DNA of 27,944 nucleotides from a virus: positions 1 to 27,944 of the IMG/VR virus record IMGVR_UViG_3300035698_008245. The stretch is one strand, 5' to 3'. A model generated the notes under the pieces. The model ran no database searches, had not been told where the DNA came from, and saw only the letters and a program-made list of their open reading frames with translations. The stretch's first letter is position 1, and the number at the start of each line of letters is the position of its first letter. The position numbers and the translations under genes were made by a program. Positions 730 to 27,944 of the stretch are shown in pieces.

Positions 730-1008
730 ATGCCTAAGAAAAGAAAGGGCATAGGAAACTCGAAGCGCTTTGAGATATTTAAGCGCGATCAGTTTGTCTG
801 CCAATATTGCGGGATCCACCCACCAAAGATTGTTTTGGATATTGACCACATCGTCCCCGTTTCAAAAGGCGGTGACAATCAAACGCACAACCTTATAACA
901 TCATGTTTCGAGTGCAACAGGGGCAAGGCAGCAAGAGACTTAAGTGTTGTCCCGTCACAAAAGACGGTAGACATCATTGAAAAAGCCTTTCTAGCCGAAA
1001 GCGCATAA
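730..1008 (+). CDS. HNH endonuclease
   Basis: A 92-aa HNH nuclease. A zinc knuckle pair is visible at C24-x2-C27 and C59-x2-C62, framing the catalytic core: D39-H40 in LDIDHIVPVSKGGDN, then N50, N54 and the terminal NRGKAARDL helix. This is the compact McrA/HNH_5-like arrangement common in phages, where such proteins act as free-standing homing nucleases or help packaging or DNA processing. The start ATG directly abuts the TAA of the HTH gene, so the two are probably co-translated. It is far from the terminase genes, which argues mildly against a packaging role; which DNA it cuts cannot be told. Confidence 0.85.
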   Translation: MPKKRKGIGNSKRFEIFKRDQFVCQYCGIHPPKIVLDIDHIVPVSKGGDNQTHNLITSCFECNRGKAARDLSVVPSQKTVDIIEKAFLAESA

Positions 1009-3751: not shown

Positions 3752-4168
3752 ATGACCGATGAAACAAAAAATCCAGTGGGAAGGCCAACCGATTACCGGG
3801 AGGCTCACTGCGAAACCGTCCTAGAGCTCGGGAAGCTCGGGAAATCAGTAACGCAAATGGCTGTAGGACTGGGTGTTGTGAAGCAAACCCTGTACGATTG
3901 GGAAAAGAAATACCCTATTTTTCTGGACTCCATGACACGCGCAAGGCAGCTATCGCAGGATTGGTGGGAAACAAAAGGGCAGGACTCATTGGATGCTATG
4001 ACCTTTCAAGCGGCAGTCTACAACAAGCAAATGATGAATAGATTTCCAGAAGACCATAGGGATGTTTCGACTGTTCGAAGCCAGCAACTCGACAAAGACG
4101 GCAAGGAAGCTGATCCGTTTTTCAAAACTATACTCGACGAGGTGAAAAAACTAGAGCAGGAAAATTAA
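3752..4168 (+). CDS. terS: Terminase small subunit (DNA-recognition) protein
   Basis: A 138-aa protein. The N-terminal GRPTDYREAHCETVLELGK followed by a helix-turn-helix (KSVTQMAVGLGVVKQTLYDW, residues about 31-50) is the usual opening of this class of small terminase subunits, which bind pac or cos sites and load the large subunit. A helical middle (FLDSMTRARQLSQDWWE) probably mediates oligomerisation. The C-terminus (FFKTILDEVKKLEQE) would contact the large subunit. It lies one base upstream of the large terminase gene. Family assignment is from the HTH, size and context. Confidence 0.8.
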   Translation: MTDETKNPVGRPTDYREAHCETVLELGKLGKSVTQMAVGLGVVKQTLYDWEKKYPIFLDSMTRARQLSQDWWETKGQDSLDAMTFQAAVYNKQMMNRFPEDHRDVSTVRSQQLDKDGKEADPFFKTILDEVKKLEQEN

Positions 4169-4169
4169 T

Positions 4170-6773
4170 ATGAGCGTCCCGCCTTGGTTTGATCTCAGCT
4201 ATAAATCCACGATAATTTATTACATCAAGATATTGGGGGCCGCTGAAGAGAAGGGCGAAGAGGAAGTTCTGGATGCCAAGAGGCATTTAGCCGAAAACGA
4301 TCTATTCTTTCTGCTGGTGAACGTCCTCAACCGCAAAGACATCCTGCATCCTTGGCTTTTCGAGCGTTGCCGCGAGGTTCAGCGTGACCCTAACGACCAC
4401 TTGGATCTATGGGCGAGAGAGCACTATAAAGATTTTAATGTTGAAGAACCCGTGGCAACGCCAACAGGATGGAAAAAGCACGGCGATCTGGTTGTCGGTG
4501 ATTGGGTTTATGGATCTAGTGGCGGTCCTGTGAAGGTTGTGGCCCTGAGTGAGCGATTCACAGACGCGCAATGTTACAGGATCACGTTCGATGATGGCTA
4601 TGAGGCAGTGTGCGGCTCTGGTCACTTGTGGGAGGTCGAGAAGCACACGAGAAAACGCAAAGGAAAAGGCCGTGTCTATAGGGAAAAGGTGGTCCTTCCG
4701 ACGCACGAAATTGCTGGTATGGATCACAAGGCCGATAAACGCCTGTCAATTCCAGTGGCTCCGCCTCTTCTGAATGTTGAGCATATTCTTCCCATAGAGC
4801 CTTATGTTTTGGGATTGTGGCTTGGTGATGGAATCTCAGCAGATGGAAGGATAACAAGCGCTTATGATGAAATATGGGATTATATCTCAGATTTAGGGTG
4901 CGAGCTATCGGACAATGCAAGGAAAGACGACACACAGACCAGAACTGTCTACGGTATCGGGCCACTCTTGCGAGATATCGGCGCTTTAAACAATAAGCAC
5001 ATACCCAGAGGCTATGCTTGGGCTAACGAGAGGCAGCGCAGAGAGCTTTTGCAAGGACTGATGGATAGCGGCGGGCATTGCAGCACACGAGGAACTGCTA
5101 CATTCTGCAATCAGAGCGAGCAATTAGCCAACGATGTGTTTGATCTGTGCCAAAGCCTTGGGTTAAAGCCAAGTACATACCGCTATGAGGGCGACAAAAA
5201 GCCGTATTGGCAGGTGGCGTTTCAAGCTTATGAGGCTGACAATCCGTTTAGAATTAAAAGAAAGCTATTACGCTGCAAAAAAGGCGCAAGAAAATCACCG
5301 AGGAGATACATTGTTTCCGTCGAACAGGTGGAAACGGTTGAGACATCTTGCATACAGGTCGATGCAGAAGATGGCGTATATCTTGTTGGGAGGAATCTTG
5401 TGCCAACGCACAACTCAACAGTAATCACATTTGGCCTGACAATCTTTGATCTGATCAACGACCCAGAGCTGACCATTGCCATCTTCAGCCATACCAAGCC
5501 CATTGCGAAGAAGTTTCTAGGCCAGATCAAATCAGAATTTGAAATGAATGAGGATCTGCCGCGCCTATGGCCCGATATTTTCTATGAGAACCCCAAGTCG
5601 GATGCCCCGAAATGGTCTGAAGACACCGGAATCATCATCAAACGCAAGAGCAATCCCAAGGAAGCTACGATTGAGGCGCATGGTTTGGTTGATGGACAGC
5701 CCACATCTCGCCACTTCAAGGGCCGTGTGTACGATGATGTTGTGACAATGGAGAGCGTAAACACGCCTGATCAGATCTCCAAGACCACCAAGGCACGCCA
5801 AATGAGTGATAACCTCGGCGCTTCCGGTGGATGGGTGCGCTATCTCGGTACGAGATACCACCTGTTCGATGATTACCGCGTCATGATCGACGACAAGGTG
5901 GCCACTCCGCGCATTCATCCGGCAACCATAGACGGCACGGAAAACGGCGAGCCCGTGCTTATGACCCGCGAGGACTTGGCCAAGAAGCGCAGAAACCAAG
6001 GCCCGTATGTGTTCTCCTCGCAGATGTTACTTGATCCAACTGCCGATAAGGCTATGGGATTCGACAAGAGGTGGCTGGCCCATGGCGATGTGGATTTTTC
6101 GGGGGCCATGAGATCACTCTGGCGGTTCATTATTGTTGACCCAGCGGGCTCAAAGCAGCGCAAAGGCAACGATTACACTACAATGTGGGTTATCGGGCAC
6201 GGCGAGGATAAGAAATACCGCGTTCTCGATATCGTGCGTGATCGCCTTAGTCTCTCAGGCCGGTGCTCTACGCTTATGGAGCTACACAGGCATTGGGAAC
6301 CGCACCTTGTCGCGTATGAGGAATACGGGATGCAGGCCGATATCGAACATATCAAGTATGTTCAGGAGCAAGAGCTTTATGATTTTAATATCGTGCCGCT
6401 TGGTGGTTCAATGCCCAAAACGCACCGTATTCTGCGTCTTGTGCCCATGTTTGAAAACGGATTTGTGCCAGTTGACGAGGGCGGCGATGGTGTTTCAAAG
6501 AGCAGGATTATCCTACCGACATCGTGCTATAAGCCAGACTATCAGGGCCATAGCCGCGATCTCGTCAAGGATTTCATTGAGCAGGAATACACGGCCTTCC
6601 CTGTTTTGTCACATGATGATATGCTAGATGATCTGGCGCGTATCGTGGACCTTGAGGAAATGGGCCTGATTGAGATACCGAAGAAGCTTCCGGCCAAGGC
6701 GCACGGCTATGGATTGAATGCTGGTCTTAGAAACTTAGGAAAATCAAGGAAAGATTCATGGCTTACGGTTTAA
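4170..6773 (+). CDS. terL: Terminase large subunit interrupted by an intein
   Basis: An 867-aa precursor; removing the intein leaves 539 aa, normal for a large terminase. The ATPase P-loop is split: WAREHYK ends the N-extein (K87) and S416-T417 starts the C-extein, so the rejoined motif is REHYKST. Walker B is RVYDDVV (D522, D523). The C-terminal RNase H-like headful nuclease has motif I FIIVDPAG (D657), motif II VAYEEYG (E717/E718) and motif III SHDDMLDD (H815-D820). The protein pumps DNA into procapsids through the portal and cuts the concatemer. AGGA lies 10 nt upstream of the ATG, one base after the small terminase; the 3' end overlaps the portal gene by 16 nt. Without splicing the ATPase site is destroyed, so packaging must depend on intein removal. 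Confidence 0.95.
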   Translation: MSVPPWFDLSYKSTIIYYIKILGAAEEKGEEEVLDAKRHLAENDLFFLLVNVLNRKDILHPWLFERCREVQRDPNDHLDLWAREHYKDFNVEEPVATPTGWKKHGDLVVGDWVYGSSGGPVKVVALSERFTDAQCYRITFDDGYEAVCGSGHLWEVEKHTRKRKGKGRVYREKVVLPTHEIAGMDHKADKRLSIPVAPPLLNVEHILPIEPYVLGLWLGDGISADGRITSAYDEIWDYISDLGCELSDNARKDDTQTRTVYGIGPLLRDIGALNNKHIPRGYAWANERQRRELLQGLMDSGGHCSTRGTATFCNQSEQLANDVFDLCQSLGLKPSTYRYEGDKKPYWQVAFQAYEADNPFRIKRKLLRCKKGARKSPRRYIVSVEQVETVETSCIQVDAEDGVYLVGRNLVPTHNSTVITFGLTIFDLINDPELTIAIFSHTKPIAKKFLGQIKSEFEMNEDLPRLWPDIFYENPKSDAPKWSEDTGIIIKRKSNPKEATIEAHGLVDGQPTSRHFKGRVYDDVVTMESVNTPDQISKTTKARQMSDNLGASGGWVRYLGTRYHLFDDYRVMIDDKVATPRIHPATIDGTENGEPVLMTREDLAKKRRNQGPYVFSSQMLLDPTADKAMGFDKRWLAHGDVDFSGAMRSLWRFIIVDPAGSKQRKGNDYTTMWVIGHGEDKKYRVLDIVRDRLSLSGRCSTLMELHRHWEPHLVAYEEYGMQADIEHIKYVQEQELYDFNIVPLGGSMPKTHRILRLVPMFENGFVPVDEGGDGVSKSRIILPTSCYKPDYQGHSRDLVKDFIEQEYTAFPVLSHDDMLDDLARIVDLEEMGLIEIPKKLPAKAHGYGLNAGLRNLGKSRKDSWLTV
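4431..5414 (+). other. Intein with class 3 hallmarks and LAGLIDADG endonuclease domain, inside terL
   Basis: A 328-residue insertion (precursor residues 88-415). The N-terminal Hint block reads EEPVATPTGWKKHGDLVVGD but position 1 is Asp88, not Cys, Ser or Ala. The C-terminal block ends VPTHN (N415) followed by Ser416. Three residues match the class 3 signature: W154 in block B (SGHLWEV), C394 in block F (TSCIQVDAEDG) and T413 just before His-Asn. In class 3 inteins the block F cysteine replaces the missing first-residue nucleophile. Between them is a two-motif DOD homing endonuclease: YVLGLWLGDG (D220) and LLQGLMDSGG (299-302 region), the second lacking its usual acidic residue. The junctions are placed by restoring REHYKST and could shift by one residue. 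Confidence 0.88.
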
Positions 6774-8707
6774 CAAAGCAATTACCAGATGATAACCAAG
6801 AGCTAGTGCGCAGGCTGGCAATGCGTTGGATCAGAGCGGCAGGACCGCACAACGTATGGGCAGAGAGGGCAAAGCAGTGCACCGAATTTCTTGAGGGAGA
6901 TCAGTGGACCGAAGAGCAAAAGGCCGCAATGCGCGAGATACAGCGCAACGCCCTTACCATCAACAAGATTGCGCCATTGTTCCGGTTGGTTATGGGCTAT
7001 CAATCCTCGAATCGGCTCGATGTTAATTATCAGCCAACCAATGACGCGCAATCAACACAAGACATGGGAGAACTTCTTTCCGCCGTTTACAAGTCCGAAG
7101 CGGGTAGGATGGATTTGAAGTACATTGATTCCGAGGTTTTCGCAGATGGAATTACCACCGGGCGAGGCTTCTGGGATAAGCGTCTTGATTTTGAGAATAA
7201 TGATTTAGGTGAGATGAGGGTAGTAAACAGCGACCCATTCTCAACGTATATCGACCCGGACGCCAGCACATATGACCTTGAGAACTCAGCGGCCTATATC
7301 CAGGATAGTGTGTGGACTGACATTGACTCCATCGCCTCGCTTTACGGACCTGAGGCCGGGCGCGCAGTTGAGGATATGAATTCAGGCGGATATCAATCAT
7401 CACTCTTACATTTCCTTGGCGAGCAAGACGTGTCCCCAGAGCGGTTCTTCGGGAAGTACGCGGATGATAAGGCTATGGGCAATTGGGCCGATGTTTATCA
7501 TACCGATTTCGTGGATCGTCAGGCTAAGCGTGTAAGGCTGCTCGATTCCCAGTACAAAGTCACAAGCGTAAAGCCATGCTTCATTGATTTGGAAACCGGG
7601 GATAAGGAGCCAATACCGGACGAGTGGCTTAAACCTGAAAACCACCATAAGATTGATAAATCCCTCGAATATGCGGAGAAGGTCGGCAACCCCCTCAAAA
7701 TAGTGAACCGCCCAGTCAAGCGCGTGCGTTGGAGCGTGTCAGCCGGAGATATCCTCATTTACGATGGCTGGTCCCCATATGATTCCTACACCAAAGTCGG
7801 TTTCTTCCCTTATTTCAGACGCGGTAAGACGCGCGGTATGATCGACGATCTGATTGATCCGCAAATGGAAATCAACAAAAAGCGCTCTGTGATCTCCGAC
7901 ATCCTCAACAGAAACGCAAACTCAGGTTGGATCTACGAGGAATCTGCTCTTGACCCCGATCAAGAAGAGAACCTGCGCAGTTACGGGTCTGCGCCTGGCA
8001 TCAATGTTAAATGGAAGCGTAATGCTCAGAACTCAGAAGCACCAAAACGCATTGAGCCCGGCGGATATCCACAAGGGCTTGATCGTCTTGAGCAGAAGTC
8101 CACAGACGATCTGAACCAGATTAGCGGCATCAATGAGAGCGCGATGGGACAGATTGACCGTGTGCAGAGCGGCAGAGCTATCGAGGCAAGGCAGCGCCAA
8201 GCTGTTCTATCCATCCAGCTTTATCAGGATAACTTCCAGCGCTCTAAGAAGCTTTTAGGCAAAAAAGGCCTTGAGATAATGCAGAAGCATTACACAGAGT
8301 CTCGCGTTTACCGGATCGTTGGCGAGGACAGTAATCTCGTTACGCATGAGATCAACAAGAAACAGCAGACCGGAACGAACTCATTTGAGCGCCTGAACGA
8401 CATCACCGTGGGCAACTACTCGGTTGTGATCGACGAGACACCGATCAGCGCGACATTCAAACAAGCACAGTTCGAAGAAATGATGATGTTGCTTGAGAAG
8501 CTTGGACCAGTGGGTGAGGCGCTTGTCCAGACATCGCCTGAGCTTATTATTGACCAGACATCCATGCCGCGCAAGGAAGACTGGAAGAAGGGATTAATGC
8601 GGGCCTCGGCAATGACACCACCGGGAACTGAGGGCGCATCAGCAGGGGGAGCGGGATCAATGCCTGTCGGACCAGCAGCGGGCACGCCGGAGAAATTCGT
8701 ATCATGA
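6758..8707 (+). CDS. Portal protein, P22 gp1-like
   Basis: A 649-aa protein of the P22-type portal family, slightly shorter than P22 gp1. Diagnostic stretches are the N-terminal GDQWTEEQKAAM, LTINKIAPLFRLVMGYQ, the acidic pair SDPFSTYIDPDAS, a central GMIDDLIDPQMEINKKRS and the long helix region QSGRAIEARQRQAVLSIQLY. The portal forms the dodecameric ring through which DNA enters and leaves the head and on which the tail is built. AAGGAA precedes the ATG, which lies within the last codons of the terminase gene (16-nt overlap). The Gly/Ala/Pro-rich tail (ASAGGAGSMPVGPAAG) is probably disordered. Confidence 0.93.
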   Translation: MAYGLTKQLPDDNQELVRRLAMRWIRAAGPHNVWAERAKQCTEFLEGDQWTEEQKAAMREIQRNALTINKIAPLFRLVMGYQSSNRLDVNYQPTNDAQSTQDMGELLSAVYKSEAGRMDLKYIDSEVFADGITTGRGFWDKRLDFENNDLGEMRVVNSDPFSTYIDPDASTYDLENSAAYIQDSVWTDIDSIASLYGPEAGRAVEDMNSGGYQSSLLHFLGEQDVSPERFFGKYADDKAMGNWADVYHTDFVDRQAKRVRLLDSQYKVTSVKPCFIDLETGDKEPIPDEWLKPENHHKIDKSLEYAEKVGNPLKIVNRPVKRVRWSVSAGDILIYDGWSPYDSYTKVGFFPYFRRGKTRGMIDDLIDPQMEINKKRSVISDILNRNANSGWIYEESALDPDQEENLRSYGSAPGINVKWKRNAQNSEAPKRIEPGGYPQGLDRLEQKSTDDLNQISGINESAMGQIDRVQSGRAIEARQRQAVLSIQLYQDNFQRSKKLLGKKGLEIMQKHYTESRVYRIVGEDSNLVTHEINKKQQTGTNSFERLNDITVGNYSVVIDETPISATFKQAQFEEMMMLLEKLGPVGEALVQTSPELIIDQTSMPRKEDWKKGLMRASAMTPPGTEGASAGGAGSMPVGPAAGTPEKFVS

Positions 8708-24328: not shown

Positions 24329-25194
24329 TGCCATCCATACAGCTTTTAGACGGAGCGAAATCAATTAACCCTACGAGAGACGCATATCGGCAAAAGTCCG
24401 ATGAGCTTAAAGGTGCCCGTGACGCTGATAATAAAAAGATGCGCGATGACTCGGATCGCAAAGATAACCAGATGTTGCAGGCAATCGAAATGGCTGGCGG
24501 CGGTTTTCTCGATGAGGCCAAGTTTTTCTCACAAAAAAATGGCATTCAGTTCCCAGACGGTATGCTGGAAAACAGAGGGTATATGTCCACGCTTTCCGAG
24601 GCTGGAAATCGACACCCCAGCGATCCAAAGTCTGCTGAATTGTGGACAAAGACATTTGCGTCCGCTCCTGGAACAAGCCAGGAAAAAAGAATGGCGGCGA
24701 ATGCGAAGGTTCCTGTTTTAAGTCAGGACCAGCGCTCGTATGACGCATGGGTGAAAAGACAGCAATATACGGCTGCGCACGGCGCGGCAAAAGATCAAAG
24801 TTTTACTCTTGCCCCAGGCCAAACGCGCTATGACCGATCAGGATACCCAATTGCCGCCGCTGCACCTAAGCAGGATTTCCCGACTGAGGGTAAATTCATT
24901 GAAGGTTATGTCTCCGATGCTCAAAGGGCTTCAATGGGTAACTTTGATGCTACTGGCGCTATAACGTCAGGTAAGCAGGCGTATCAGGATATTTATGGTG
25001 CAGCAGGTGGCCAACCTGCTCCAGCCGCCCCGCCGCCGCCTACTCCGCAAGGGGCTCAACAGAATGGCGTGTATGCCGTGCAGCAATTAATGCTTCAGGG
25101 ATTCCAACCGGATCAAATTATTAGCGAACTTCAGAAAAGAGGAGCGAGCCCAGAACAGGCGTTACAACTTATTAACGCAGCAGGAGTTCAGTAA
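24328..25194 (+). CDS. Putative internal virion/DNA-ejection protein
   Basis: A 288-aa protein joined to both neighbours by single-base overlaps (TAATG). It is charged at the N-terminus (RQKSDELKGARDADNKKMRD), has a middle of short helices (GFLDEAKFFSQKNGIQFPDG), and a Pro-rich linker APAAPPPPTPQGAQ near residue 235. The last 45 residues (AVQQLMLQGFQPDQIISELQ, ASPEQALQLINAAG) resemble a small helical UBA-like hairpin pair. No catalytic motif is visible. Co-translation with the polyvalent gene suggests co-packaging. Confidence 0.6.
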   Translation: MPSIQLLDGAKSINPTRDAYRQKSDELKGARDADNKKMRDDSDRKDNQMLQAIEMAGGGFLDEAKFFSQKNGIQFPDGMLENRGYMSTLSEAGNRHPSDPKSAELWTKTFASAPGTSQEKRMAANAKVPVLSQDQRSYDAWVKRQQYTAAHGAAKDQSFTLAPGQTRYDRSGYPIAAAAPKQDFPTEGKFIEGYVSDAQRASMGNFDATGAITSGKQAYQDIYGAAGGQPAPAAPPPPTPQGAQQNGVYAVQQLMLQGFQPDQIISELQKRGASPEQALQLINAAGVQ

Positions 25195-27944
25195 TGCTAG
25201 AAAACAATGAGGCTTCTGCCCTGTTCGACACAGCCTTTCAAAGTCTTCAGCTAACGCATCCAAACCCTAAAAACAACGATCTCTTCGACGCAGCGCTTGA
25301 GGGTGCCGGAGCATTTGAGCCTTCAAAGGGATTGATGAGTCGGGCTACTGACGTTGTTGTGGATAAAGCTAAGCGTGCAGGCCTGGCCGCGTCCACAGGC
25401 CTTACGTTTGACGCGACAGGCGGCGCTTATGGTGTTTTGGAAGAGGCAGCGGCTCTTGGCTCAAAATACATTGGGAAACCTGCCGATGCGCTGCTTTACA
25501 ATCTTGGAGGCCAGGGCAGTATTGATCCGTTCAAGCCAGTTCAGGAAATGGCGAATAGGGCTAGAACAAGCATTAACGCTGTATCGAACGATGTCACTGA
25601 AAATATAAATGAGGGTGCCGGGCGTCTTGAAAGAGGAATTTACTCTGGTATGCGCTCCGTTGGAATGAACGCGCCGGGCTTGGCAGCTTCGGTTATAACG
25701 GGGAATCCTGGCATAGCTCTTTCTCAAATGGGCATCATAACAGCAGGAACATCGGCTGGTGAAGCGCTTGATAAAGGCCTAGATCCAACGACAGCGCTTA
25801 AACTTGGTGTGGCTACCGGAGGCACGGAAGTCCTTACAGAAATGATACCAATTGCGCGGTTTCTTGGTGATTTGAAGGTAGGGTCAGGCCTGTTAAAAAC
25901 AATCGGTAATCAGCTTGTGGCGGAGGTTCCTGGCGAGCAGGTCGCAACTATCGTGCAGAGTTTTTTTGAATGGGGATACCTCAACCCTGATAAGACATTT
26001 AAGGAATATCTCGCAGAGCTTCCGAGCGACATGGCAGACACGCTTATCTCAACATTCACTTCAGTCGGAGTACAGACCGGAGCGGCTCACACGGCAAACA
26101 AGCTCCTCGGCGGTCAGGAAGAAGAGCCTCCAGAGGACGGGGCAGGCCTTGATCAACCTCCTGAGCCTCAAGCGCCGACAGGGCCGTTACGCGACGATCT
26201 GGCTACAGCATTAGAGACGAAAGAGGCAACGCTTCCTGAGCAGGTGGCGCAACCTGAGCCTGAGCCCGCACCAGAGCCAGCACAAGAAGTCAATGCTGGT
26301 GATTTTGTTGAGCATGTAAATCAGGACGGCGAGATTGTTACAGGCACAGTGGAAAGTGTCAGGGATATTTCTGGTGAGCGAGTTATCCACATATTTGATG
26401 AAAACAACAGCCCTCAGACAATTTTTGAGAGTGATGGGCAGGTTGGCGTTGTGCAGAAAGCTGTGCCACAAGACACGGTACCATTTCCGCAAGCCCCTGT
26501 GGAAGCCATTCCTGAGAAGCCGCCAACGTTCAAAGAAACCCTGCCGACCATGAGCGATACAGAGCTTATGGAGCATTATAACGGGAAGCATGTCGAAAGA
26601 GCCAAGCACGCAAAAGCTGAACTTGAATACAGGTATCCGGATAAAGAAGTTGCGAAAACGATTGATGTTGAGCAAGCGGCTCTCGATGTGGAAACGGACC
26701 CAACTGACGGCCAGAAGGAAGCGGGAAACTTTAAAAAAGGAGCAGTATCTATCAACGGCCTGCCAATCAGCATTGAAAACCCCCAAGGCTCTATCAGAAG
26801 CGGCAAGGATTCCGACGGCGAAACGTGGCAAGTCACAATGCCTGCGCACTATGGATATTTTAAAGCCACGGAAGGCGCTGATGGAGATCATGTTGATGTG
26901 TTTATCGGCGGAGATCACGCGGCGCAGGAGGTCTATGTCGTTGATCAGATAGACCTCACTACCGGCAAATTGGATGAGCACAAAGTCCTGATGTCGTACC
27001 CCGATATCCAGACAGCCATGGATTCCTATGATCAATCTTTCAGCGATGGCCTCGGTGAGCGTAGGGTCGGCGGCGTAACGATAATGACCGTTCCAGAGCT
27101 TAAAGACTGGTTGAAGAACAAGAACACGAAGAAGGCGCTTCAATACAAGCAGGAGCAGGTAGAGGCGCAGCCTGAAGAGGTTAAGGCCCCACAAGCGCCA
27201 TTACCTGCCGAGGCCCCGCCAGAGGTAGCGACGGAGGACACCGCAATTGCGGAACCGCCCACCGCAATTGCGGAACCGCCCACCGCAATTGCGGTTCCAC
27301 AAACGGACGAAGAGTATCTGCAAGAGCGTAAAGCCATGGTAGAGAAAAGGGTGGACCAAGACATAGAAGAAAAAGCTCATAAATTGCGCGATATTCTTGG
27401 CAATACCGACAACACAATCTCAAGGAAGCGCTTTACAGAGGTAACTGGTATTAAGCTTCCGCGCACCAAAAAAGGAACATTGGAATCAGTTGATAAATTT
27501 TTGGGCATTGATGAAGCCAAGCGCACAGAACTGGACGAAGAAAGTGATGCTGCTCACATTGAGGAAGTCAGGATTCGTGATATTAATTTCTACGGAAAGC
27601 AGCTTGAGAAAGCGCAGATTAAGAAAGATGATCAAACTATATCCGTGAGGGAGTGGATAGATCAGCGCATAAGTGAAGGATATAATCAAATAACTAAGCG
27701 CGGGAATCAGTTTGTCTTGTCAAAGCCTGACGGATCAGGATTTTCATTATCACGCTTCAAAGGCATCACTGTTGAAAGCAGAAAGTATGCACAAGCTATC
27801 ATTAGTGGCTTTACAGAGCAAGAAAATCCGCGCGCCGAAGAAACGGCAGAAACAAAGGCTGTTGAGCCTGAAAAAGAGCCTGAAAAGCCCGAAACCCGCG
27901 CGCCGAAAAAAACACGCACCGTCGCCGGACAGGAGCGCCCTGAG
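25194..27944 (+). CDS. Large polyvalent protein with inorganic-pyrophosphatase domain, partial (right edge)
   Basis: Open for 917 codons and not finished at the edge; ATG 25194 overlaps the previous stop. N-terminal residues 1-310 are helical and Gly/Ala-rich (AASVITGNPGIALSQMGIIT, GTEVLTEMIPIARFLGDLKV). Residues about 366-412 form a small SH3-like strand domain (AGDFVEHVNQDGEIVTGTVE). Residues about 505-642 match the pyrophosphatase-like domain of phage polyvalent proteins: AGNFKKGAVSINGLPISIEN, WQVTMPAHYGYFKATEGADG, then D563-x-D565-x2-D568 (DGDHVDVFIG, the Mg-binding signature of PPases) and LDEHKVLMSYPD. Three TAIAEPP-type repeats follow at 683-703, then charged helices and a domain with NQFVLSKPDGSGFSLSRFKG. 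Such proteins enter the host with the DNA and counter defences or host metabolism. More domains probably lie beyond the edge. Confidence 0.88.
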   Translation, partial: MLENNEASALFDTAFQSLQLTHPNPKNNDLFDAALEGAGAFEPSKGLMSRATDVVVDKAKRAGLAASTGLTFDATGGAYGVLEEAAALGSKYIGKPADALLYNLGGQGSIDPFKPVQEMANRARTSINAVSNDVTENINEGAGRLERGIYSGMRSVGMNAPGLAASVITGNPGIALSQMGIITAGTSAGEALDKGLDPTTALKLGVATGGTEVLTEMIPIARFLGDLKVGSGLLKTIGNQLVAEVPGEQVATIVQSFFEWGYLNPDKTFKEYLAELPSDMADTLISTFTSVGVQTGAAHTANKLLGGQEEEPPEDGAGLDQPPEPQAPTGPLRDDLATALETKEATLPEQVAQPEPEPAPEPAQEVNAGDFVEHVNQDGEIVTGTVESVRDISGERVIHIFDENNSPQTIFESDGQVGVVQKAVPQDTVPFPQAPVEAIPEKPPTFKETLPTMSDTELMEHYNGKHVERAKHAKAELEYRYPDKEVAKTIDVEQAALDVETDPTDGQKEAGNFKKGAVSINGLPISIENPQGSIRSGKDSDGETWQVTMPAHYGYFKATEGADGDHVDVFIGGDHAAQEVYVVDQIDLTTGKLDEHKVLMSYPDIQTAMDSYDQSFSDGLGERRVGGVTIMTVPELKDWLKNKNTKKALQYKQEQVEAQPEEVKAPQAPLPAEAPPEVATEDTAIAEPPTAIAEPPTAIAVPQTDEEYLQERKAMVEKRVDQDIEEKAHKLRDILGNTDNTISRKRFTEVTGIKLPRTKKGTLESVDKFLGIDEAKRTELDEESDAAHIEEVRIRDINFYGKQLEKAQIKKDDQTISVREWIDQRISEGYNQITKRGNQFVLSKPDGSGFSLSRFKGITVESRKYAQAIISGFTEQENPRAEETAETKAVEPEKEPEKPETRAPKKTRTVAGQERPE
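27241..27294 (+). repeat. Three 21-bp repeats, each with a perfect 12-bp palindrome
   Basis: CCGCAATTGCGG occurs at 27241-27252, 27262-27273 and 27283-27294, exactly 21 nt apart and in frame, encoding TAIAEPP, TAIAEPP and TAIAVPQ. The third copy extends to a 14-bp palindrome. GGAACCGC and GCGGTTCC also form a larger inverted repeat (27272-27279 with 27291-27298). Confidence 0.95.

What the first reader, a model, noticed from the sequence alone, without database searches (positions are those of the whole stretch)
4431..5414. Intein with class 3 (W-C-T) signature in the P-loop of the large terminase
Seen: the insertion lies between K87 and S416, splitting REHYKST, and begins with Asp rather than Cys/Ser/Ala. 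W154 (HLW), C394 (block F) and T413 (before His-Asn) occupy the three positions that define class 3 inteins, which start splicing from a block F cysteine. Known: class 3 inteins are rare and have a proposed phage origin. Inference: packaging ATPase activity would need splicing, which could act as a checkpoint for late assembly.
Basis: partly seen in the sequence, partly recalled or inferred. Interest (0 to 1): 0.75.

Follow-up and report, generated by a model that had tools for sequence, protein, structure and literature searches.

The report
Class 3 intein in phage packaging ATPase
A self-removing protein segment of an already known type sits exactly in the ATP-binding loop of an uncultured phage's DNA-packaging motor; it should splice itself out, its DNA-cutting part has probably lost activity, and related copies have spread among related phages at the same spot.

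Summary
Residues 88-415 (nt 4431-5414) of the terminase large subunit (ORF 4170-6773) are an intein inserted between the Walker A lysine K87 and S416. The class 3 positions are all present: H65, W67, C307, T326, H327 and N328 in intein numbering. In an alignment of 103 class 3-type inteins, H, C, T and N are invariant, W is in 102, and none starts with Cys, Ser or Thr (5 start with Asp). The AlphaFold model matches the solved class 3 DnaB inteins (Z 21.7, rmsd 1.5 A). About 140 intein-free relatives read an uninterrupted RxHYKS(T/S). Thirteen other distinct inteins occupy the same site; with the window's they group together (support 89), while their terminases are scattered among intein-free ones (p-AU 2.5e-7). 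This fits one lineage that spread by homing. The window's copy has lost the second catalytic Asp of its LAGLIDADG endonuclease (LMDSGG), so it probably splices but no longer homes. P-loop class 3 inteins in phage terminases are already described and tested (mycobacteriophages, PMC5050341). The 'checkpoint' idea is untested, and relatives splice readily. Class 3 inteins are not rare in viral contigs. New member of a known kind; modest interest.

The parts
4170..6773 (+). Terminase large subunit precursor (867 aa), T7/PhiV-1-like TerL (phrog_38)
4170..4430 (+). N-extein, ends at Walker A lysine K87 (codon 4428-4430) in REHYK
4431..5414 (+). Class 3 intein, 328 aa, D88 to N415
4431..4433 (+). First intein residue Asp (intein position 1), not a nucleophile
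4572..4574 (+). Cys48 of the intein, aligned without gaps with Cys48 of M. smegmatis DnaBi1 (partner of its redox disulfide)
4623..4631 (+). Block B His65 (4623-4625) and Trp67 (4629-4631): H-x-W of class 3
4782..5285 (+). LAGLIDADG homing endonuclease domain (intein residues about 118-285)
4827..4829 (+). Block C catalytic Asp133 (aligns with PI-SceI D218), kept
5070..5072 (+). Block E Gly214 in place of the second catalytic Asp (aligns with PI-SceI D326)
5349..5351 (+). Block F Cys307 (TerL C394), predicted initiating nucleophile
5406..5414 (+). Block G Thr326, His327, Asn328 (THN), C-terminal splice junction
5415..6773 (+). C-extein, begins with +1 Ser416 (S-T of the P-loop)
3752..4168 (+). 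Small terminase subunit
6758..8707 (+). Portal protein

Best explanation
The insert is a class 3 intein that removes itself from the terminase large subunit after translation. By the pathway known for class 3 inteins, Cys307 (TerL C394), helped by His65 and Thr326, attacks the K87-D88 bond and takes up the N-extein. Ser416 then receives it, Asn328 cyclises, and the joined exteins read REHYKST, restoring the ATP-binding loop. Asp at position 1 takes no part. The intein belongs to a lineage tied to this exact site in this terminase family, and that lineage has moved between phages by endonuclease-driven homing. The window's copy keeps a complete splicing site but carries Gly for the second catalytic Asp of its LAGLIDADG nuclease, so it most likely splices but is inherited passively, the expected late stage of the homing cycle. 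Shown here: anatomy, signature, fold match, empty site, same-site lineage, tree conflict, Asp-to-Gly difference. Inferred: that it splices, the order of steps, loss of DNA cleavage, and the need for splicing before packaging.
For: Catalytic residues H65, C307, T326 and N328 are invariant in 103 aligned inteins; W67 and H327 are each in 102. None has Cys, Ser or Thr first; same-site copies start with D, L, A, G, E or M, so position 1 drifts freely. Solved class 3 DnaB inteins match by sequence and by structure: Z 21.7, rmsd 1.5 A over 127 residues, model pLDDT 89.1. In an intein-free relative the model has strand 79-83, loop 84-88, helix 89-104, with the junction K89/S90 at the start of the helix, as in a Walker A loop; K89 and S90 are invariant in 50 intein-free relatives and align with PRDHGKS of other terminases. 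Fold matches of that model are terminases, first the PhiV-1 terminase 8dgc. Terminases with the intein need 7 changes of state among 139 intein-free ones; holding window, L005, L006 and L178 together on the extein tree is rejected (p-AU 2.5e-7), although their inteins group at 100/99. All 14 same-site inteins are one group among 100 (support 89). The Asp at block E is present in 101 of the 102 inteins that have the column; the window is the exception.
Against: Splicing and cleavage were not measured. No near-identical second genome was found, so the Asp-to-Gly change rests on one metagenome assembly and could be a base error. The 103 inteins were gathered by similarity to this one, so their conservation is not an unbiased census. 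The group of 14 has support 89, not higher, and L032 is a long branch whose place is unsure (AU does not reject window + L032 on the intein tree, p 0.32).
Confidence: 0.9

Rival explanations
1. It is a class 3 intein whose endonuclease is still active: Gly214 is either an assembly error or is compensated, and the element still homes.
For: The rest of the nuclease looks intact: 23 of 25 conserved positions are kept, and the model is confident through the domain. One base separates GGC from an Asp codon. Same-site relatives keep both Asp residues.
Against: The position is Asp in 101 of 102 inteins with that column and aligns with the catalytic D326 of PI-SceI. The PhoVMA intein, which lacks the active-site aspartates, cut DNA only after active-site residues were grafted in (PMC8966425).
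Confidence: 0.25
2. The intein is kept because it gates packaging: splicing is held back until late infection or until the cell is reducing, for example through a Cys48-Cys307 disulfide as in mycobacterial DnaBi1.
For: The insert must leave before ATP binding. Cys48 aligns without gaps with DnaBi1 Cys48 and is present in 13 of 14 same-site inteins and 75 of 103 in all. DnaBi1 is locked by a Cys48-Cys118 disulfide under oxidation (PMC6195587).
Against: Cys48 is needed for DnaBi1 splicing itself, so its conservation may be catalytic. Five tested terminase inteins spliced readily in E. coli (PMC5050341). About 140 relatives do without an intein, and the spread pattern is that of a selfish element.
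Confidence: 0.08
3. It is a class 1 or class 2 intein that merely happens to carry W, C and T, with another residue starting the reaction.
For: Hint fold matches include class 1 inteins, at lower Z for the splicing domain.
Against: Position 1 is Asp and is not a nucleophile in any of 103 inteins; the best splicing-domain matches by sequence and structure are class 3.
Confidence: 0.03
4. The element is dead and no longer splices, leaving an inactive terminase.
For: The endonuclease has lost a catalytic residue.
Against: All 14 highly conserved positions of the splicing part are kept, the frame is open, and the terminase lies in an apparently intact packaging module. A dead intein here should block packaging.
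Confidence: 0.03

Closest known systems
Mycobacteriophage TerL1-a and TerL1-b class 3 inteins (PMC5050341; cluster E phages, Thibault, BAKA)
   Same: Class 3 signature, full LAGLIDADG domain, in the P-loop of a terminase; TerL1-a sits between the invariant Lys and the following Thr, the same kind of junction as here; 37% intein identity over the full length for Thibault and for Sotrice96.
   Different: Host terminase is of another family (Terminase_1), not the REHYK type of this window; the block E Asp is present in Thibault and Sotrice96; the BAKA and Bethlehem nucleases were shown to cut.
Mycobacterial DnaB class 3 mini-inteins (6bs8 M. smegmatis DnaBi1; 6rix, 6riy M. chimaera)
   Same: Splicing-domain fold and all catalytic positions, with the same N-terminal numbering (C48, H65, W67); insertion before the Ser of a P-loop.
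   Different: No endonuclease domain, and a helicase host protein.
Same-site inteins in REHYK-type terminases (L001, L005, L006, L032, L152/L207, L178, L189-L195)
   Same: Identical insertion point, WCT signature, one group in the intein tree.
   Different: All keep the block E Asp; first residues differ (A, D, G, L, E, M); L152 ends in TFN.
PI-SceI and the PhoVMA intein
   Same: Two-motif LAGLIDADG nuclease inside an intein; PhoVMA is an intein with a decayed nuclease.
   Different: Inteins of V-type ATPase with Cys at position 1; PhoVMA lost active-site residues in both motifs, the window only in the second.

Membership tests
Class 3 intein | No Cys, Ser or Thr needed at intein position 1 | tested here: met
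   Asp, aligned with Ala, Gly, Leu and others at position 1
Class 3 intein | Trp at B:12 | tested here: met
   W67, aligned with the Trp of 6bs8 and 6rix
Class 3 intein | Cys at F:4 | tested here: met
   C307, invariant in 103
Class 3 intein | Thr at G:5 | tested here: met
   T326, invariant in 103
Class 3 intein | His at B:10, His-Asn at the end, Ser or Thr at +1 | tested here: met
   H65, H327, N328, S416
Class 3 intein | Hint fold like solved class 3 inteins | tested here: met
   Z 21.7 to 6bs8, rmsd 1.5 A over 127 residues
Class 3 intein | Splicing started by the F:4 Cys through a branched intermediate | not testable with these tools
   needs expression and mutants
Class 1 intein | Cys, Ser or Thr at position 1 | tested here: not met
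   Asp
Active two-motif LAGLIDADG homing endonuclease | Catalytic Asp in block C | tested here: met
   D133 aligns with PI-SceI D218
Active two-motif LAGLIDADG homing endonuclease | Catalytic Asp in block E | tested here: not met
   G214 at the position of PI-SceI D326
Phage terminase large subunit (T7/PhiV-1-like) | TerL fold: ATPase with P-loop plus RNase H-like nuclease | tested here: met
   phrog_38 match, Terminase_6C RNase H-like domain, fold matches 8dgc, 5oea, 3cpe, strand-loop-helix at the junction
Terminase P-loop insertion (TerL1-a kind of site) | Insertion between the Walker A Lys and the next Ser/Thr | tested here: met
   K87/S416; empty site RxHYKS in about 140 relatives

The most novel reading that the evidence does not exclude
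Cys48 and the catalytic Cys307 form a conserved redox lock in phage terminase inteins, so that oxidative or other stress in the infected cell holds the packaging ATPase unspliced and delays packaging, making the intein a regulator and not only a parasite.
Probability: 0.07. Interest if true: 0.65.

Novelty: new member of a known kind. Interest (0 to 1): 0.3.

Why it matters
It adds a terminase family that is poorly represented among named phages (best matches 22-28% identity) to the known hosts of P-loop class 3 inteins, and gives 14 distinct same-site inteins plus about 140 empty alleles in which homing, fixation and nuclease decay can be followed. The natural variety at position 1 (D, L, A, G, E, M at one site) is itself evidence that this position is free in class 3 splicing. 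The wide presence of Cys48 (75 of 103), which the DnaBi1 study called non-conserved, makes it testable whether that residue serves catalysis or redox control.

Tried and rejected
Boundary shifted by two residues (N90 as first residue, judged by eye): rejected, because same-site copies such as K-ALDLDTPVPTPTGW align without a gap to K-DFNVEEPVATPTGW. Search of named phages for near relatives of the window's DNA: no match. Sequence profile of the spliced terminase against solved structures: no usable match, so the P-loop was tested by fold model and by alignment with the CVT22, T5S1 and ANMV-1 terminases. General decay of the nuclease: not seen, only 2 of 25 conserved positions deviate. Repeats flanking the insert: none. 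The accession tried for phage Bethlehem is not in the collection; other mycobacteriophage terminases were used in its place. Literature for a PI-SceI D326 mutant in the held library: none found; that D218 and D326 are its catalytic residues is from my own knowledge.

Full report
What is there. The ORF at 4170-6773 encodes an 867-residue terminase large subunit, between a small terminase subunit (3752-4168) and a portal protein (6758-8707). Residues 88-415 are an in-frame insert of 328 aa at exactly nt 4431-5414. The window is the whole of a 27,944-base virus record.

The insert is an intein. Intein-free relatives carry the uninterrupted motif: L002, 62% identical to the spliced window protein, reads DLWAREHYKSTIITL, and about 140 other viral or prophage terminases read RxHYKS(T/S) or a near variant. 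Both residues at the junction are invariant in 50 aligned intein-free relatives. The two ends of the insert match the solved class 3 DnaB inteins (E 1e-16 to 2e-15 with the single sequence, about 1e-29 with a profile of same-site inteins).

Class 3 signature. In intein numbering the residues are H65, W67, C307, T326, H327 and N328, followed by Ser. I aligned 103 distinct inteins: the window, relatives from viral and bacterial contigs, and named phages. H65, C307, T326 and N328 are invariant; W67 and H327 are each missing once. Position 1 is A in 67, G in 12, D, L and P in 5 each, then R, M, Q and E, never Cys, Ser or Thr. This sample was drawn by similarity to the window's intein, so it shows what the family keeps, not an unbiased count. 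PMC5222942 defines class 3 by Trp B:12, Cys F:4 and Thr G:5, with Ser or Thr at +1 in nearly all; all are met. An AlphaFold model from 11 sequences has mean pLDDT 89.1. Its splicing domain matches 6bs8 at Z 21.7 (1.5 A over 127 residues), and the whole chain matches PI-SceI at Z 28.

The site is a Walker A loop. No solved structure is close in sequence. The model of the L002 terminase (pLDDT 86.5) has strand 79-83, loop 84-88 and helix 89-104, so the junction K89/S90 lies at the start of the helix, and the fold matches terminases: PhiV-1 (8dgc), D6E, T4 gp17, Sf6, P74-26. Pairwise alignments put K89 on the lysine of PRDHGKS and PRAHLKS in named phage terminases.

A lineage tied to the site. 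Thirteen other distinct inteins sit at the same point: L001, L005, L006, L032, L152 (identical intein in L207), L178 and L189-L195. Together with the window they form one group among 100 inteins (support 89). Their terminases do not group: seven changes of state are needed for seven intein-bearing proteins among 139 intein-free ones, and holding window, L005, L006 and L178 together on the extein tree is rejected with p-AU 2.5e-7, while their inteins group at 100/99. This is the pattern expected of homing at a fixed site. The loci were the best-scoring ones in each scan, so the share of alleles with an intein cannot be estimated.

The endonuclease. A LAGLIDADG domain occupies about residues 118-285. 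A profile alignment to PI-SceI places window D133 on D218 and window G214 on D326. Block E reads LMDSGG in the window, and Asp is present in 101 of the 102 inteins that have the column; the pattern that fetched most of them allowed Gly there, so the sample is not biased against it. Otherwise the domain is well kept (23 of 25 conserved positions) and the splicing part is complete (14 of 14). Loss of DNA cleavage with splicing retained is therefore likely but unproven, and a single base error at 5070-5072 cannot be ruled out.

Function. The insert splits the ATP-binding loop, so packaging should need splicing; PMC5050341 draws the same conclusion for mycobacteriophage terminase inteins and reports that five representatives spliced readily in E. 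coli. A checkpoint role is thus possible but unsupported. The most concrete version would be redox control: M. smegmatis DnaBi1 is locked by a Cys48-Cys118 disulfide (PMC6195587), and the window has Cys48 at the gap-free aligned position, as do 13 of the 14 same-site inteins (the window counted) and 75 of 103 in all. Since every Cys48 mutant of DnaBi1 failed to splice, conservation may only reflect catalysis.

Verdict. Class 3 inteins in the P-loop of phage terminases are known; this is a new member in another terminase family, with a probably disabled nuclease.

Noticed in passing
L184:3679-4420 (Actinomycetes MAG; approximate): A relative of the same terminase has an empty P-loop (REHGKSS) but a different, class 1-like insert (starts CLSPDTEI after GTRYHF, ends SKN before Ser) with a LAGLYDADG motif: a second insertion site in this family.
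   Followed up: partly
L152:3151-4116 and L207: Same-site class 3 intein ending in TFN instead of THN (penultimate His replaced by Phe); the identical intein is in a bacterial MAG and in a viral contig.
   Followed up: partly
L009:582-1589 and L015:2985-3380: Two near relatives at the same terminase site (KNGK/STLLSG), one with a full endonuclease (336 aa), one a 132-aa mini-intein: a natural pair for endonuclease loss.
   Followed up: partly
L028:2237-3250 (Vibrio phage 12VC501 TerL): Class 3-type intein with Asn at B:12 instead of Trp while Cys F:4 and Thr G:5 are kept; a natural test of whether Trp is needed.
   Followed up: no
L273 (Escherichia phage FL15), L025 (Gordonia phage Zipp): Intein-bearing terminases annotated as 'replicative DNA helicase DnaB' or 'exonuclease', perhaps because of the intein sequence.
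   Followed up: partly
   Followed up: partly
intein position 48: Cys48, called non-conserved in the DnaBi1 study, is Cys in 75 of 103 class 3-type inteins of this sample.
   Followed up: partly
window 730-1008: Free-standing HNH endonuclease (92 aa) upstream of the packaging genes; not part of the intein.
   Followed up: no
window 25194-27944: Large open-ended ORF with a domain shared by very large phage proteins, some annotated as DarB-like antirestriction or virion proteins (phrog_37402, phrog_10089).
   Followed up: no
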